DNA of 64,000 nt from Amycolatopsis sp. cg9 (GTDB lineage: Bacteria > Actinomycetota > Actinomycetes > Mycobacteriales > Pseudonocardiaceae). Every line of letters begins with the position of its first letter. The stretch's first letter is position 1. Made by a program: the position numbers and the translations under genes. Location of the stretch: positions 5,440,501 through 5,504,500 of the forward strand of contig NZ_CP166850.1 of the NCBI RefSeq assembly GCF_041346945.1, written 5' to 3'. Below the pieces are notes generated by a model. That model made no database searches and was not told the DNA's origin. It was given only the letters and a program-made list of their open reading frames with translations. Positions 17,508-23,539 of the stretch are shown here, in pieces.

Positions 17508-18200
17508 ATGGCGCGGGTCAACTACAACGAGCTCAACGACACCATCCGCTACACCACCTGGTCGGTCTTCCGGATCGAGCCCGGCAGGCTCGGCGAGGAC
17601 CGCGGGACCGCGGGCCGGGAAACGACCGAGTACCTCGACGGTCTCGAGGCCAAGGGCGTCGTCGTCCGGGGTGTCTACGACCTGTCCGCGCTGCGCGCCG
17701 ACGCCGACTACATGATCTGGTGGCACGCCGAGGAGATCGAGCAGGTCCAGGCCGCCTACGCCGGGTTCCGCCGGACGCCGCTCGGGCGCGCGTCGACGCC
17801 GGTCTGGAGCCAGACCGCGCTGCACCGGCCCGCCGAGTTCAACAAGAGCCACATCCCGGCGTTCCTCGCCGGGGAAGAGGCGCGCAAGTACGTCTGCGTG
17901 TACCCGTTCGTCCGCTCCTACGAGTGGTACCTGCTGCCGGACGCCGACCGCCGCAAGATGCTGGCCGACCACGGCAAGGAAGCCCGCGACTACCCGGACG
18001 TGCGCGCCAACACCGTCGCGTCGTTCGCGCTGGGCGACTACGAGTGGATCCTCGCCTTCGAAGCCGACGAGCTGCACCGGATCGTCGACCTGATGCGCCA
18101 CCTGCGCGGCACCGAGGCGCGGCTGCACGTCCGGGAGGAAATCCCGTTCTACACCGGCACGCGCGTGCCGCCCGCCGAGCTCGTCGCGGCCCTCCCGTAG
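17508..18200 (+). CDS. hemQ: coproheme decarboxylase HemQ/ChdC (chlorite-dismutase-like)
   Basis: A 230-residue coproheme decarboxylase that converts Fe-coproporphyrin to heme b with peroxide. The first half starts with [13 protein letters not shown]; the second holds the diagnostic [14 protein letters not shown], containing the candidate radical tyrosine, and [12 protein letters not shown], with a candidate axial histidine. It follows hemY by 56 bases, completing the terminal heme route except for the ferrochelatase, which is not in this window. Confidence 0.94.
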
Positions 18201-19746: not shown

Positions 19747-19772
19747 GTTCGGGGGGAGCGGTCGGGCTGGGG

Positions 19773-20000
19773 GTGGGCCGCGCGAGCGGCTGAGCCGGAG
19801 GCGGTCGGCGGTGGGGAGGTGGGCCGCGCGAGCGGCTGAGCCGGAGGTGGTCGGCGGTGGGGAGGTGGGCCGCGCGAGCGGCTGAGCCGCAGGCGGTCGG
19901 CGGTGCGGAGGTGGTCCAGCAAGCGGCTGAGCCGGAGGCGGTCGGCGGTGCGGAGGTGGGCCGCGCGAGCGGCTGAGCCGCAGGCGGTCAGCGGCGCCGG
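19773..20000. repeat. five-copy 46-bp tandem repeat reaching into the 3' end of the next gene
   Basis: Units begin GTGGGCCGCGCGAGCGGCTG at 19773, 19819, 19865, 19911 and 19956. The spacing is 46, 46, 46 and 45 bases, and units differ by a few substitutions. The fourth unit is the most diverged (GTGGTCCAGCAAGCGGCTGAG). The last unit runs into the stop codon and final codons of the minus-strand gene at 19988-20326. This suggests the array grew by duplication of that gene's 3' end. There are no spacers, so it is not a CRISPR array. Confidence 0.85.
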
Positions 20001-20326
20001 AGCCGGTCCCGCAGGCCCCGCCGCGGCTTCGGCAGGTGCCCACCCGCGATCAGCCACGTCACGAACTCGTCCGCGTACGCCCCCGACCGTTCCGCGGCCA
20101 GCTTCGGCCGCTCCCCGTTGAACTCCGCGAACAACGGCCCGTACCGCTCGCCCAGCGCCTCCGCCAGCTCGGGCCGCTGGTAAGCCAGCACCCGCCCGTG
20201 CTTCCGCCGCAGCACCGAAGCCTCCACCCGCAGCCGCGCGGGGTCGAAGCCGGAAGGTGCCGGGCCCGAAGCCAGCAGCGCCTTCAGCAGCTCGGCCTGC
20301 CGCGCCGCCAGCTCCTCCCGGCTCAC
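19988..20326 (-). CDS. small partner protein of the DUF692 cassette
   Basis: A 112-residue soluble, Arg-rich protein of unknown function. The start is a GTG inside the stop of the DUF692 gene (GTGA). A much longer frame upstream is antisense noise. The sequence is helical, with AARQAELLKALLASG at the N-terminus and LAEALGERYGPLFAEFN in the middle. It ends in a very basic tail (LRDRLRRR). Position and size resemble the accessory (HvfC/DUF2063-like or SCO6045-like) proteins that travel with DUF692 enzymes, possibly a substrate-docking subunit. That is inference from context. Confidence 0.7.
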   Translation of the reverse strand: MSREELAARQAELLKALLASGPAPSGFDPARLRVEASVLRRKHGRVLAYQRPELAEALGERYGPLFAEFNGERPKLAAERSGAYADEFVTWLIAGGHLPKPRRGLRDRLRRR

Positions 20327-21123
20327 CCCGTCACCGCCGCCCGCAACGAGGCCAGCTCCGATGCCAGTTCCTCGTCGCTCGGGTAGTCGTCGTCGCGCTC
20401 CAGCAGCACGCCCGGCGGGTCCGTCCGGCGGCGCAGCTCTGTCAACAGCGCGAGCACCTCCGGCAGCACCGGGTGCGCGTGCGTGTCGTGGTAAACGCCG
20501 TCGCGCTCGACGCCGCCCGCCATGTGCACGTACGCCAGCCGCTCCCACGGGATGCCGTCCAGGAACGCCACCGGGTCGGTGCCGATGTTGCGGGCGTTGG
20601 CGTAGAGGTTCGCGACGTCGATGATCAGCCGGCAGCCGGTCCGGTCGGTCAGCTCGGTGAGGAACTGCTCCTCCGTCAGCTCGTTGTCCGGCCAGTCCAG
20701 CACCGCCGCGATGTTCTCCAGTGCGAACGGGACGTCCACGATGGACTGGGCCAGCCGGACGTTCGCCACCAGCACGTCGAGCGCCTCGCGGGTGCGGGGG
20801 AGCGGCATCAGGTGCCCCGAGTCGAGCCCGCCCGCGCGGACGAAGCACACGTGGTCGCTGACCAGCGGCGCGTCCACCGCCCGCGCGATCTCCGCCAGGT
20901 GCTGGACGCGGCCGGTGTCGAGCGGCTCGGCCCCGCCCAGCGAAAGCGAAACCGCGTGCGGCAGCACCGGCAGCCCGCGCCGGCGCAACGCCACGAGCGT
21001 CTCCGGGAGGTGGTCGGCGTGCAGGTTCTCCGCGACCACCTCCACCCAGTCGACGCCCGGGAGCCGCGCGATGGACAGGTCCAGTTCGTGCCGCCAGCCG
21101 ATCCCGATGCCGAGCTCACCCAC
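20323..21123 (-). CDS. DUF692 family multinuclear non-heme iron enzyme (MNIO)
   Basis: A 266-residue TIM-barrel protein of the DUF692/UPF0276 (MbnB/BufB) family; characterised members use an iron cluster and O2 to modify cysteines or other residues of peptides. The metal-binding landmarks are in order: NLHADHLPE, VLPHAVSLSLGG, VSDHVCF, ENIAAVLDWPD, IIDVANLYANARN, YVHMAGG, DTHAHPV and LLERDDDYP. The GTG at 21123 overlaps the stop of the TIGR04222-like gene by eight bases and gives the normal family length. The probable targets are the Cys-rich tails of the two proteins encoded just upstream. Confidence 0.92.
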   Translation of the reverse strand: MGELGIGIGWRHELDLSIARLPGVDWVEVVAENLHADHLPETLVALRRRGLPVLPHAVSLSLGGAEPLDTGRVQHLAEIARAVDAPLVSDHVCFVRAGGLDSGHLMPLPRTREALDVLVANVRLAQSIVDVPFALENIAAVLDWPDNELTEEQFLTELTDRTGCRLIIDVANLYANARNIGTDPVAFLDGIPWERLAYVHMAGGVERDGVYHDTHAHPVLPEVLALLTELRRRTDPPGVLLERDDDYPSDEELASELASLRAAVTG

Positions 21124-22030
21124 CGCAGCCCCCTCCGCCGCACGAAGAACCGCACGAAGACCCGCTGCTGCACGACGAGCTCGAACAGGACGAGCCGCTG
21201 CTGCACGAAGAACCGCCCGACGAGCCACCGCCGCCGAACGACGACACCGGTGGGGTCAGCGCCGCGCTGAGCTCTTCGTCCGGGTACATCGCCCAGCCGC
21301 CCAGCGCGACCGCCGCCGCGGCGCCGCCGAGCAGCGCGCCGCCCGCCAGCATGCCGGCCGGCACCGGCCCGGACGCCGCCGAACGCGCCTGGCCGAGCAC
21401 CCGGTGCCCCGCCGCCGACGGCTGCCGGGCGCCCGTCTTCGACCGGCGGACCGCGGCCACGATCGCCAGCACCGCCGCGAGCAGGACCAGGAACACCAGG
21501 ACCCCGACCGGGCGGCCGAGCGAGATGCCGTTGACCAGCCGCACCACGCCGAGCGCCAGCACGGCGAGCTGCAGGACCAGCCCGAACGTCCGCGCCTGCC
21601 GCTTCGCCGCCGCCGACGCCAGCAGGCCCTGCTGGTCGAGGCCGGTTTCCAGGGCCCGCATGACCGCGGAGCCGCGGACCTGCGACCGGATCATCGACGT
21701 CGTCTTCAGCTGCGCCACGTCGTAGACCGCCCGCTCCAGCGGCTCCGACGGCCGGGCCCCGGCCTGGCTGACCTGCTTGTAGCTGTTGACGCGCAGCTGC
21801 CCGCGGTCCACCAGGGCCGCGATCGCCGCGTCGACGGCCCGGTCGGGGCCGCCGGCGAGGAACGCGAGCTGGTAGACGGTCGGCGGCGGGACGGGCCGTC
21901 CGTCGTCCGCGCGCAGCGCCCGGCTGCTCACGACGCCGGCCACGACGACCCTGATCAGCAGGACCGCGCCGAGCAACGCGATGTAGAGGACCACGAAATC
22001 CGGTCCGGAAATGCCCCACGGGTCGTTCAT
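21116..22030 (-). CDS. TIGR04222-like membrane protein with Gly/Ser/Cys tail (six Cys)
   Basis: A 304-residue protein. The N-terminal signature WGISGPDFVVLYIAL runs into a first membrane helix. A cytoplasmic-looking domain follows, then two or three hydrophobic helices (about 153-200 and 245-262). The last ~42 residues consist almost only of Ser, Gly and Cys, with six cysteines spaced 4-6 residues apart (for example SSCSSGSSCSSSSC). This matches the TIGR04222 'near-uncomplex' family. It overlaps the DUF692 gene, which fits a modifying enzyme made together with its substrate. Function unknown. Confidence 0.82.
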   Translation of the reverse strand: MNDPWGISGPDFVVLYIALLGAVLLIRVVVAGVVSSRALRADDGRPVPPPTVYQLAFLAGGPDRAVDAAIAALVDRGQLRVNSYKQVSQAGARPSEPLERAVYDVAQLKTTSMIRSQVRGSAVMRALETGLDQQGLLASAAAKRQARTFGLVLQLAVLALGVVRLVNGISLGRPVGVLVFLVLLAAVLAIVAAVRRSKTGARQPSAAGHRVLGQARSAASGPVPAGMLAGGALLGGAAAAVALGGWAMYPDEELSAALTPPVSSFGGGGSSGGSSCSSGSSCSSSSCSSGSSCGSSCGGGGCGG

Positions 22031-22096
22031 CGCCCGTCTCCCCTCAGTGAGTCGCGATTACCGTAGCTGTGAGACGCGCGCGCTCGCGTCGGCGTT

Positions 22097-23008
22097 TCAA
22101 CCGCCGCAGCCCCCGCCGCCACCACCACCGCAACCCCCGCCGCCACCGCCGCAGGAGCTGCCACCCCCGCCGCCGCAGGAGCTGCCGCCGTAGTAGCCGA
22201 CGGCGGCGCCGCCCCCGGCGCTTGCCCAGCGGGTGCGCGACCGGCGGTAGGCGCGCGCCGTCGACTGCTGCGTGGCCCGGCTGACCGCCAGCCGGACGTC
22301 CTTGTCGGGGTGCTCGCCGAACCCGCCCGAGGCGACGGCCCCGGCCGGTCCCGCGGTGAGCGTCGCGGTGCGGCGCGCCTCTTCCGCGGCGGCCCGGCCG
22401 GCGGCGGTGGCCTTCACCTCGCGCTTCTTCGCGGCGCGGACCGTGGTGAACACGGCCGCGACGACGTTCGGCGCGAGCAGGCCCAGCAGGAAGCCGACGG
22501 GGTGGCCGGTCGCTGACCCGGCGATCAGCCGGACGACGCCGAAGACGAACAGCGCCCAGTACGCGACGGCGGCGAACACCCAGGTCAGACGCAGTTTCCG
22601 CACGTCGGTGAGCAGGCCGCGGGCGGTCAGCCCGGCCTCCAGCCCGGTCGCCGACGGGTGGGCGCGCACCTCGGCGCGCACCCGGTCGACGGTCGTGCCG
22701 GTCTTGCCGATCCGCGCCAGCGCGGCCCGGCCCAGGTCGTCCGGCGCCGAGCCGCGGACGCGGTGCAGGCGCCCGGTGCCGTCCATCCGGACCGCCTGCC
22801 GTTCCAGCAGCCGCGCGACGACCAGCTCGCCGAGCCGCTCGCGGCCGCCGGTCAGCAACGCGAGTTCTTCGGCCCGCTCCGGCGCCCCGCCGGCGCGCCC
22901 CCGCGCCAGCAATGCCCCGCGCACCCCCGCGGCCAGCGCCGTGAGGAGCAGCAGGGCCAGGTACAGGCCCGCGAACACCGGTCCCGGAATGCCCCAGGTG
23001 TCGGTCAT
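22097..23008 (-). CDS. TIGR04222-like membrane protein with Gly/Cys tail (four Cys)
   Basis: A 303-residue paralogue of the next gene. It starts with the same WGIPGPVFAGLYLAL signature and helix, has a pair of central hydrophobic helices (about 145-190) and ends in a ~30-residue tail of almost pure Gly with four Cys (SSCGGGGGSSC, then two more Cys). The body differs considerably from its neighbour, so the tail and the N-terminal signature are what is conserved. The ATG is well placed, and 66 bases separate it from the next gene. Probably the first gene of the cassette. Confidence 0.82.
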   Translation of the reverse strand: MTDTWGIPGPVFAGLYLALLLLTALAAGVRGALLARGRAGGAPERAEELALLTGGRERLGELVVARLLERQAVRMDGTGRLHRVRGSAPDDLGRAALARIGKTGTTVDRVRAEVRAHPSATGLEAGLTARGLLTDVRKLRLTWVFAAVAYWALFVFGVVRLIAGSATGHPVGFLLGLLAPNVVAAVFTTVRAAKKREVKATAAGRAAAEEARRTATLTAGPAGAVASGGFGEHPDKDVRLAVSRATQQSTARAYRRSRTRWASAGGGAAVGYYGGSSCGGGGGSSCGGGGGGCGGGGGGGCGG

Positions 23009-23097: not shown

Positions 23098-23520
23098 TTA
23101 CGACTCGGGGACCAGCTTCAGCGAAATCGAGTTGATGCAGTAGCGCTGGTCGGTCGGGGTCGGGTAGCCCTCGCCCTCGAAGACGTGCCCGAGGTGGCTG
23201 TGGCAGGAGCCGCAGAGCACCTCGATCCGCTTCATGCCCATGGCGCGGTCTTCGCGCAGCAGCACGGCGTCGGAGTCCGCCGGGTCGAAGAAGGACGGCC
23301 AGCCGCAGTGGCTTTCGAACTTCGTGTCGCTGCGGAACAGCTCCGCACCGCACGCGCGGCACTCGTAGACGCCGGTCGTCTTCGTGTCGGTGTACTCACC
23401 GGTGAACGGCCGTTCGGTCCCCGCCTGGCGGAGCACGGCGTACTCGTCGGGGCTGAGCTGCTGCCGCCATTCCTGCTCGGACTTCACGACGCGCGGGGTC
23501 GCGCCGACAACGGGTTTCAT
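23098..23520 (-). CDS. msrB: peptide-methionine (R)-S-oxide reductase
   Basis: A 140-residue repair enzyme reducing R-methionine sulfoxide in proteins. Zinc ligands are CRACG and CGSCHSHLGH. FESHCGWPSF is typical, and the catalytic cysteine is in DQRYCINSISL near the C-terminus. The ATG at 23520 is chosen (MKPVVGATPR). A GTG six codons upstream is an alternative with no clearer ribosome site. It directly follows the DUF692 cassette's promoter side on the same strand, but no functional link is shown. Confidence 0.95.
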   Translation of the reverse strand: MKPVVGATPRVVKSEQEWRQQLSPDEYAVLRQAGTERPFTGEYTDTKTTGVYECRACGAELFRSDTKFESHCGWPSFFDPADSDAVLLREDRAMGMKRIEVLCGSCHSHLGHVFEGEGYPTPTDQRYCINSISLKLVPES

Positions 23521-23539
23521 ACCTTTCACCCGATCCACG

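What the first reader, a model, noticed from the sequence alone, without database searches (positions are those of the whole stretch)
19988..23008. DUF692 (MNIO) cassette with two membrane proteins carrying Cys-only tails
A DUF692 enzyme, a small basic partner and two TIGR04222-like membrane proteins are packed together. The enzyme gene overlaps the 3' end of one membrane-protein gene and the small partner overlaps the enzyme gene. The two membrane proteins share the WGIxGP start and the Gly/Ser/Cys tails (six and four Cys) but little else. Characterised DUF692 enzymes (MbnB, BufB, ChrH types) modify cysteines of peptides with iron and O2. The simplest reading is that this enzyme modifies the tail cysteines of membrane-anchored proteins, possibly for metal binding or membrane organisation. 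A membrane-fixed substrate in place of a free peptide would be new for the class as far as I know.
Basis: partly seen in the sequence, partly recalled or inferred. Interest (0 to 1): 0.85.

Follow-up and report, generated by a model that had tools for sequence, protein, structure and literature searches.

The report
Iron enzyme with cysteine-tailed membrane proteins
An Amycolatopsis-like soil bacterium carries a four-gene unit in which an iron-dependent enzyme and its helper most likely change cysteines in the tails of two membrane proteins chemically; the gene association is already published as a hypothesis, and the new points here are how closely cysteine tails follow the enzyme across genomes and which side of the membrane the tails seem to face.

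Summary
The cassette is real: on the minus strand, two TIGR04222 membrane proteins (A 22097-23008, B 21116-22030), a DUF692/MNIO enzyme (20323-21123) and a 112-aa partner (19988-20326); the last three genes overlap by 8 and 4 nt. Antoine et al. 2025 (PMC12452194) already describe such clusters and propose the Cys tails as substrates, so this is a new member of a published, biochemically untested class.

Added here: (1) of 163 sampled genomes with an untruncated TIGR04222 gene, 113 of 117 with a Gly/Ser/Cys tail encode an MNIO, against 20 of 46 without one. (2) In 96 MNIO-adjacent tails no two Cys are closer than three residues (97 +/- 8 expected) and Cys-Gly is favoured, the dyad preferred by a thiooxazole-forming MNIO. 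(3) Hydropathy and charge put 92 of 143 tails, A's kind included, in the cytoplasm, against the published periplasmic prediction; B's weak fourth segment would put its tail outside. (4) One genome with MNIO split over three frames keeps one tail Cys. Against: 20 genomes, 14 of one genus, have MNIO but no strict Cys tail. No chemistry was tested.

The parts
22097..23008 (-). TIGR04222 membrane protein A, 303 aa; three predicted membrane segments (residues 11-29, 144-162, 171-189)
   Evidence: TIGR04222.1 94.8 bits, cut-off 43; hydropathy
22100..22189 (-). Gly/Ser/Cys tail of A, 4 Cys, ends CGG; predicted cytoplasmic
   Evidence: sequence; charge counts of the three-segment class
21116..22030 (-). 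TIGR04222 membrane protein B, 304 aa; segments 12-30, 148-166, 175-193 and a weak fourth, 225-243
   Evidence: TIGR04222.1 155.2 bits; hydropathy
21302..21358 (-). weak fourth membrane segment of B (residues 225-243, Kyte-Doolittle mean 1.77)
21119..21238 (-). Gly/Ser/Cys tail of B, 6 Cys, ends CGG; predicted extracytoplasmic if the fourth segment is real
20323..21123 (-). DUF692/MNIO enzyme, 266 aa, GTG start inside the end of gene B
   Evidence: PF05114 278.8 bits; translation; conserved His/Asp/Glu positions
19988..20326 (-). partner protein, 112 aa, basic C-terminus, DUF2063-related (PME-type 2-like)
   Evidence: partner match in 80 of 80 MNIO loci; 22 of 46 aligned members match PF09836 DUF2063 at E <= 1, best 5.7e-7, the window's own does not
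21116..21123 (-). 8-nt overlap of gene B and enzyme gene
   Evidence: sequence
20323..20326 (-). 4-nt overlap (GTGA) of enzyme and partner genes
   Evidence: sequence

Best explanation
The cassette makes and modifies membrane-anchored cysteine tails. The MNIO, with the small DUF2063-like partner presenting the substrate, oxidises Cys residues in the C-terminal (G/S)-C-G repeats of the TIGR04222 proteins encoded just upstream, most likely to a heterocycle of the 5-thiooxazole type. The enzyme has no obvious export signal and should work in the cytoplasm. A's tail is predicted to stay on the cytoplasmic face, where the enzyme reaches it directly; B's tail, after a weak fourth segment, would be modified before or during translocation and end outside. 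The modified tails would bind a soft metal, copper being the first guess. Shown here: gene set, overlaps, co-occurrence, tail grammar. Inferred: that the tails are substrates, the product, the sides, the metal role.
For: Families and overlaps. Of 80 MNIO loci, 80 have a partner match and 78 a Cys-tailed TIGR04222. Order sample, 219 genomes: TIGR04222 in 95, MNIO in 85, both in 81. Strict Cys tail in 96 of 106 TIGR04222 genes within 6 kb of MNIO, 9 of 27 with MNIO elsewhere in the genome, 2 of 14 with no MNIO; new genomes of a class sample: 31 of 51, 5 of 15, 2 of 17. Genomes: 113 of 117 with a Cys tail have MNIO versus 20 of 46 without (Fisher p 8e-14, not corrected for phylogeny). By genus in the order sample: 22 with MNIO and Cys tail, 1 Cys tail without MNIO, 4 with neither (tallied by hand; p 3e-4). 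Tail grammar in 96 adjacent tails: 0 Cys pairs at distance 1-2 (shuffles 97 +/- 8), commonest spacing 6; Cys followed by Gly 355 of 445 (shuffles 230 +/- 9), never by a charged residue; 73 of 96 end CGG. FonBC, a 5-thiooxazole MNIO, is reported to prefer Cys-Gly and did not process the three tested substrates with a charged residue after Cys (PMC12668002, passage). In G368 the MNIO match lies in three frames and the neighbouring tail has 1 Cys; G309 of the same genus has a one-frame match and 4 Cys.
Against: No biochemistry. 20 of 133 genomes with MNIO and TIGR04222 have no strict Cys tail, 14 of them in genus g5; in genus g5 only 9 of 24 TIGR04222 genomes have a strict Cys tail while 23 of 24 have MNIO, and no other strict Cys-tail ORF was seen in the 7 such loci scanned. 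14 Cys-tail genes lie away from any MNIO, though in MNIO genomes. MNIO also occurs without TIGR04222: 4 of 85 MNIO genomes in the order sample, 15 of 76 in the class sample. The enzyme is below the cut-off of each characterised MNIO equivalog matched. The window's tails lack the Glu/Lys of EGKCG-type substrates. The fourth segment of B is marginal.
Confidence: 0.65

Rival explanations
1. Published variant: the Cys tails are extracytoplasmic, bufferin-like periplasmic metal traps modified before export (Antoine et al. 2025).
For: PMC12452194 infers periplasmic tails from the predicted topology of selected proteins; the passages seen do not name the predictor. B's kind and 43 of 143 strict tails come out as outside by my counts too.
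Against: Mean K+R for 133 three-segment proteins: 0.1 before segment 1, 3.8 in 20 residues after it, 4.1 in 20 before segment 2, 0.5 in loop 2-3, 4.25 after segment 3, i.e. N-terminus out, domain and tail in. 92 of 143 strict tails come out as inside; in the new class-sample genomes 33 in, 3 out, 1 undecided.
Confidence: 0.25
2. The tails are not MNIO substrates: they are plain thiol tails (metal binding, redox or interaction), and the MNIO acts on another part of TIGR04222 or on an unrecognised peptide.
For: 20 genomes have MNIO and TIGR04222 but no strict Cys tail; in four of these read in full (G123, G577, G442, G493) the TIGR04222 protein has two Cys near the first membrane segment instead. 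14 Cys-tail genes are not near an MNIO gene.
Against: Cys tails are nearly confined to MNIO genomes (113 of 117). The spacing avoids CC and CxC, which thiolate metal sites commonly use (recalled), and favours Cys-Gly.
Confidence: 0.2
3. The Cys repeats are drift: slippage of low-complexity GC-rich DNA that hitchhikes with a linked enzyme gene.
For: Short tandem repeats are detected in both tail-coding regions (22100-22152 and 21140-21226).
Against: Shared spacing rules, CGG ends and absence of close Cys pairs over 96 distinct tails; absence of Cys in the MNIO-distant paralogues of family f60.
Confidence: 0.05

Closest known systems
TIGR04222-MNIO-PME-type 2 clusters of Antoine et al. 2025 (PMC12452194; abstract, passages, section 18)
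   Same: Same gene families, mostly Actinomycetota, Cys/Gly/Ser tails; one of their partner models is a 115-aa protein of Saccharothrix sp. NRRL B-16314. The partner in my locus L043 of that strain is 115 aa and 39% identical to the window's; that it is the same protein is inferred.
   Different: They predict periplasmic tails and report that a third of genomes with TIGR04222 lack MNIO. In the passages I saw they do not cross Cys tail with MNIO per genome, nor describe pairs with opposite predicted sides; I did not read the whole paper or its supplements.
Bufferins/captophorins (BufA-BufB-BufC, FonABC)
   Same: MNIO plus DUF2063-type partner acting on Cys; Fon-type substrates favour Cys-Gly. 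The nearest curated MNIO model here is BufB (202.5 bits).
   Different: Their substrates have Sec signal peptides and DUF2282/EGKCG-type motifs, their partner is a full-length DUF2063-RRE protein. Here the substrate would be an integral membrane protein and the partner has 112 aa.
DAG-RiPPs (DybA-DybH) and >30 kDa ChrH-type substrates (PMC12636315; abstract and passages)
   Same: MNIO modifies the C-terminus of a protein-sized or membrane-anchored product.
   Different: CPACGMG motif, lipobox anchoring, ChrH subfamily (window enzyme 46.6 bits, cut-off 600).
DUF2207 membrane proteins (PF20990)
   Same: Distant sequence similarity of the TIGR04222 domain: 17 of 62 aligned members match at E <= 0.01, best 1.8e-7.
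   Different: Window protein B is below the Pfam cut-off (19.2 versus 33 bits) and A has no match.

Membership tests
MNIO (PF05114 MbnB_TglH_ChrH) | family profile over cut-off | tested here: met
   278.8 bits, cut-off 25
MNIO (PF05114 MbnB_TglH_ChrH) | conserved metal-ligand and catalytic-base positions | tested here: met
   In the 272-aa numbering, H62, H97, E142, D175, N178, H206, D219, H221, E248, D250 each occur in at least 137 of the 140-141 aligned ORFs with a residue there; HxxSLSLGG, SDH, DTH and LLERD stretches align with 3bww. Which of these bind metal is recalled; that D250 corresponds to the proposed base FonB-D249 (PMC12668002 section 13) is inferred.
Characterised MNIO equivalogs (BufB, HvfB, ApyH, ChrH, MbnB) | NCBIfam equivalog cut-offs | tested here: not met
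   202.5 of 310, 161.7 of 360, 97.3 of 400, 46.6 of 600, 44.1 of 325 bits
TIGR04222 membrane protein | domain over cut-off | tested here: met
   A 94.8, B 155.2 bits, cut-off 43
PME-type 2 partner | gene follows the MNIO gene and the product lacks a DUF2063 Pfam match | tested here: met
   19988-20326, no Pfam match at E <= 1
PME-type 2 partner | structural kinship to DUF2063/NGO1945 | tested here: inconclusive
Bufferin-type substrate | Sec signal peptide and DUF2282/EGKCG Cys motif | tested here: not met
   A and B start with a hydrophobic segment lacking N-terminal positive charge; no Glu or Lys in the tails; no DUF2282 match. No signal-peptide predictor was run.
Bufferin/captophorin chemistry | Cys-derived thiooxazole binding copper | not testable with these tools
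   needs mass spectrometry, NMR and metal binding

The most novel reading that the evidence does not exclude
TIGR04222 proteins are a membrane-fixed class of MNIO products in which enzymatically made heterocycle tails line the membrane, most of them on the cytoplasmic face where the enzyme works; in Amycolatopsis and relatives paired paralogues place one tail inside and one outside, giving a two-sided metal-handling brush rather than an exported peptide.
Probability: 0.25. Interest if true: 0.75.

Novelty: new member of a known kind. Interest (0 to 1): 0.45.

Why it matters
The MNIO substrates with proven chemistry that I met in the passages seen are peptides or secreted or lipidated proteins. 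An integral membrane protein modified on its tail would widen the class to membrane machinery in many actinobacteria. The co-occurrence, the spacing grammar and the disagreement over which face the tails occupy turn a published guess into precise tests: which cysteines change mass, and on which side they sit.

Tried and rejected
Considered and rejected: (a) The long 301-aa start of the enzyme: its first ~35 residues would be another frame of B's tail region. (b) MsrB, upstream on the same strand, as a functional part: MsrB matches lie in 71 of the 80 loci, but in loci L086-L311 only in 20, all from family f1 genomes; many of those loci have only 1-1.5 kb of flank, so this is weak, and a shared ancestral location is the simpler reading. 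(c) A strict two-way rule that each MNIO-adjacent TIGR04222 gene has a Cys tail: 10 of 106 (order) and 20 of 51 (class) do not. (d) Profile search of the TIGR04222 alignment against the PDB gave only hits near chance (best E 0.025); two MarR-type regulators among them (E 0.03 and 0.3) hint at a winged helix, no more. (e) A first draw across the phylum was too thin to decide: 6 of 158 genomes with TIGR04222 over the cut-off, 9 with MNIO, 5 with both; TIGR04222 without MNIO in the fragmented G013.

Literature: searches (no paper), 46, 61, 74; TIGR04222 occurs in 2 held papers. Seen: PMC12452194 abstract, passages, section 18; PMC12636315 abstract, passages; PMC12668002 abstract, one passage, section 13; PMC5183585 one passage; the others only as listings.

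Limits of the counts: one search kept the best 80 of 498; one search lists 120 of 836 and 120 of 892 homologues; genome searches scored at most 12 (order) or 9 (class) candidates per genome, at E 1e-10 and 1e-12. The 2 window tails were left out of the 96 tails and the 143; genomes whose only hit is truncated (G256, G398) are not in the 163. 'Cys tail' has two definitions: >= 2 Cys in the last 60 residues and a stricter Gly/Ser/Cys rule; with the looser one the order figures are 98 of 106, 9 of 27, 3 of 14, the class figures 32 of 51, 9 of 15, 6 of 17. Several ORF ends in the 'no MNIO' and 'elsewhere' rows are probably frame artefacts. A notebook line says 16 distant Cys-tail genes; the count is 14.
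Full report
WHAT IS THERE. On the minus strand the window holds, in transcription order, TIGR04222 protein A (22097-23008), TIGR04222 protein B (21116-22030), a DUF692/MNIO enzyme (20323-21123) and a 112-aa partner (19988-20326). A and B pass the TIGR04222 cut-off (94.8 and 155.2 bits against 43) yet give no BLASTP alignment with each other. The enzyme's likely GTG start lies inside the last codons of B (8-nt overlap) and the partner's GTG overlaps the enzyme's stop (GTGA, 4 nt), the layout expected of translational coupling. The tails carry 4 and 6 Cys and both end in CGG. The genome has one MNIO match and these two TIGR04222 matches over the cut-off; a third (37 bits, below the cut-off, C1:9140123) has no tail cysteines. 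The nearest loci by enzyme are Amycolatopsis.

PRIOR WORK. Antoine et al. 2025 (PMC12452194; abstract, passages, section 18) report that 40% of >1,000 signal-peptide-less Cys proteins encoded before MNIO genes are TIGR04222 proteins, describe 'PME-type 2' partners, and propose that subsets of TIGR04222 proteins are MNIO substrates with periplasmic Cys-rich tails, noting that a third of TIGR04222 genomes (490 of 1372) lack MNIO. One partner model is a 115-aa protein of Saccharothrix sp. NRRL B-16314; in my locus L043 of that strain the gene after MNIO encodes a 115-aa homologue, 39% identical to the window's partner. The finding is therefore a member of a published class. PMC12636315 (preprint; abstract, passages) reports MNIO action on the C-termini of >30 kDa proteins and on lipid-anchored products, so protein-sized and membrane-bound MNIO products are no longer new either.

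CO-OCCURRENCE. Of the 80 loci kept for the enzyme (best 80 of 498 confirmed), 80 have a partner match and 78 a Cys-tailed TIGR04222 gene; the other two begin at contig ends. An evenly drawn order sample of 219 genomes gave TIGR04222 in 95 and MNIO in 85, both in 81; 4 genomes have MNIO only and 14 TIGR04222 only. With a strict Gly/Ser/Cys rule, 96 of 106 TIGR04222 genes within 6 kb of MNIO have a Cys tail, 9 of 27 in genomes with MNIO elsewhere, 2 of 14 in genomes without MNIO. For new genomes of a class draw of 296 (TIGR04222 in 78, MNIO in 76, both in 61) the figures are 31 of 51, 5 of 15 and 2 of 17. Per genome: 113 Cys tail with MNIO, 4 Cys tail without, 20 MNIO without Cys tail, 26 neither (Fisher p 8e-14, not corrected for shared ancestry). 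None of the four exceptions (G303, G346, G426, G510) has a predicted membrane segment; G426 ends close to a contig end and G510's ORF end is not a convincing tail. Much of the contrast comes from a few lineages (family f61 without MNIO, a second Cys-less TIGR04222 locus in family f60), so the number of independent events is small. A thinner phylum draw (158 genomes) gave 6 with TIGR04222 over the cut-off, 9 with MNIO, 5 with both.

RESULTS AGAINST. 20 of 133 genomes with MNIO and TIGR04222 have no strict Cys tail; 14 of them are of genus g5 (kinship 'same class', family f4; taken to be Streptomyces, not verified), where 9 of 24 TIGR04222 genomes have a strict Cys tail and 23 of 24 an MNIO. Of the other six, G465 has a near-miss tail with Cys and G232 has its MNIO at the start of another contig. 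In the g5 loci examined the MNIO and partner matches fall in one ORF, and the Cys-less TIGR04222 proteins read in full have two Cys near the first membrane segment. No other strict Cys-tail ORF was found in 7 such loci. 14 Cys-tail genes lie away from MNIO and would need modification in trans.

A NATURAL EXPERIMENT. In genome G368 the MNIO match lies in three frames and the adjacent TIGR04222 tail has one Cys; in G309 of the same genus the MNIO match lies in one frame and the tail has four. This is a single case and sequencing error is possible.

TAIL GRAMMAR. In 96 distinct MNIO-adjacent tails of the order sample no two Cys are adjacent or one residue apart (0 observed, 97 +/- 8 in shuffles of the same tails). 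The commonest spacing is 6; Cys is followed by Gly in 355 of 445 cases (230 +/- 9), preceded by Ser in 225 (120 +/- 8), never followed by a charged residue; 73 of 96 tails end CGG. The 5-thiooxazole-forming FonBC is reported to prefer a Cys-Gly dyad and did not process the three tested substrates with a charged residue after Cys (PMC12668002, passage). Isolated Cys-Gly units suit one-by-one modification better than thiolate metal clusters, which commonly use CC or CxC (recalled).

TOPOLOGY. Among 133 three-segment homologues the mean K+R count is 0.1 before segment 1, 3.8 in the 20 residues after it, 4.1 in the 20 before segment 2, 0.5 in the loop between segments 2 and 3, and 4.25 after segment 3: N-terminus out, domain in, tail in. 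In 75 four-segment homologues, B's kind, a weaker fourth segment (median Kyte-Doolittle 1.77) is preceded by 2.45 and followed by 0.28 K+R, which would put the tail out. Of 143 strict tails in the two genome samples, 92 come out as in, 43 out, 4 undecided, 4 without a segment; in the class part 33 in, 3 out, 1 undecided. Of 78 MNIO loci with Cys-tailed TIGR04222, 56 have two or more; 37 of these combine an inside and an outside tail and 19 are all inside; the 22 single ones split 13 in, 9 out.

MECHANISM. Most likely the enzyme, with the DUF2063-related partner (22 of 46 aligned members match DUF2063 at E <= 1, best 5.7e-7, the window's own does not), oxidises tail cysteines in the cytoplasm, giving heterocycles like those of bufferins; A's tail stays at the inner face and B's is moved out. 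Expected catalytic positions are conserved, including the Asp that corresponds, by inference, to FonB-D249. The enzyme passes none of the curated equivalog cut-offs that it matches, so the product is open. Copper handling is an extrapolation from bufferins.

VERDICT. Observation confirmed; interpretation supported in its core but already published as a hypothesis; the co-occurrence per genome, the spacing rules and the sidedness are the additions. Interest 0.45.

Noticed in passing
17508-18200 (+) and 23098-23538 (-): The cassette lies between a chlorite-dismutase/HemQ-type gene (PF06778) and MsrB (PF01641); MsrB matches occur in 71 and HemQ-type matches in 52 of 80 MNIO loci, and HemQ-type matches also in four genus-g5 loci near the cassette, L253, L254, L260, L306, suggesting an old shared location.
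   Followed up: partly
19758-19994: A 46-bp tandem repeat, 5.2 copies, runs up to the 3' end of the partner gene.
   Followed up: no
L219, L220, L221, L224 (MNIO ORFs): In these genus-g5 genomes the enzyme and partner matches fall in one long ORF, suggesting fusion; 15 of 24 g5 genomes with TIGR04222 lack a strict Cys tail.
   Followed up: partly
L170, L174, L176, L181, L182, L184, L195, L200, L216 (order sample); L229, L232, L250, L257, L259 (class sample): Fourteen Cys-tailed TIGR04222 genes away from any MNIO gene, in genomes that have an MNIO elsewhere.
   Followed up: partly
L136, L140, L147, L150, L153, L154, L155, L162, L163, L166, L169: A second, Cys-less TIGR04222 locus away from any MNIO gene, with a shared ending (LLAVDP or LLAIDP), in family f60 genomes.
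   Followed up: no
L135, L142, L059, L069, L075: Extra TIGR04222 paralogues beside MNIO with Trp-rich, Cys-less ends (GGWFxGGWLA-like).
   Followed up: no
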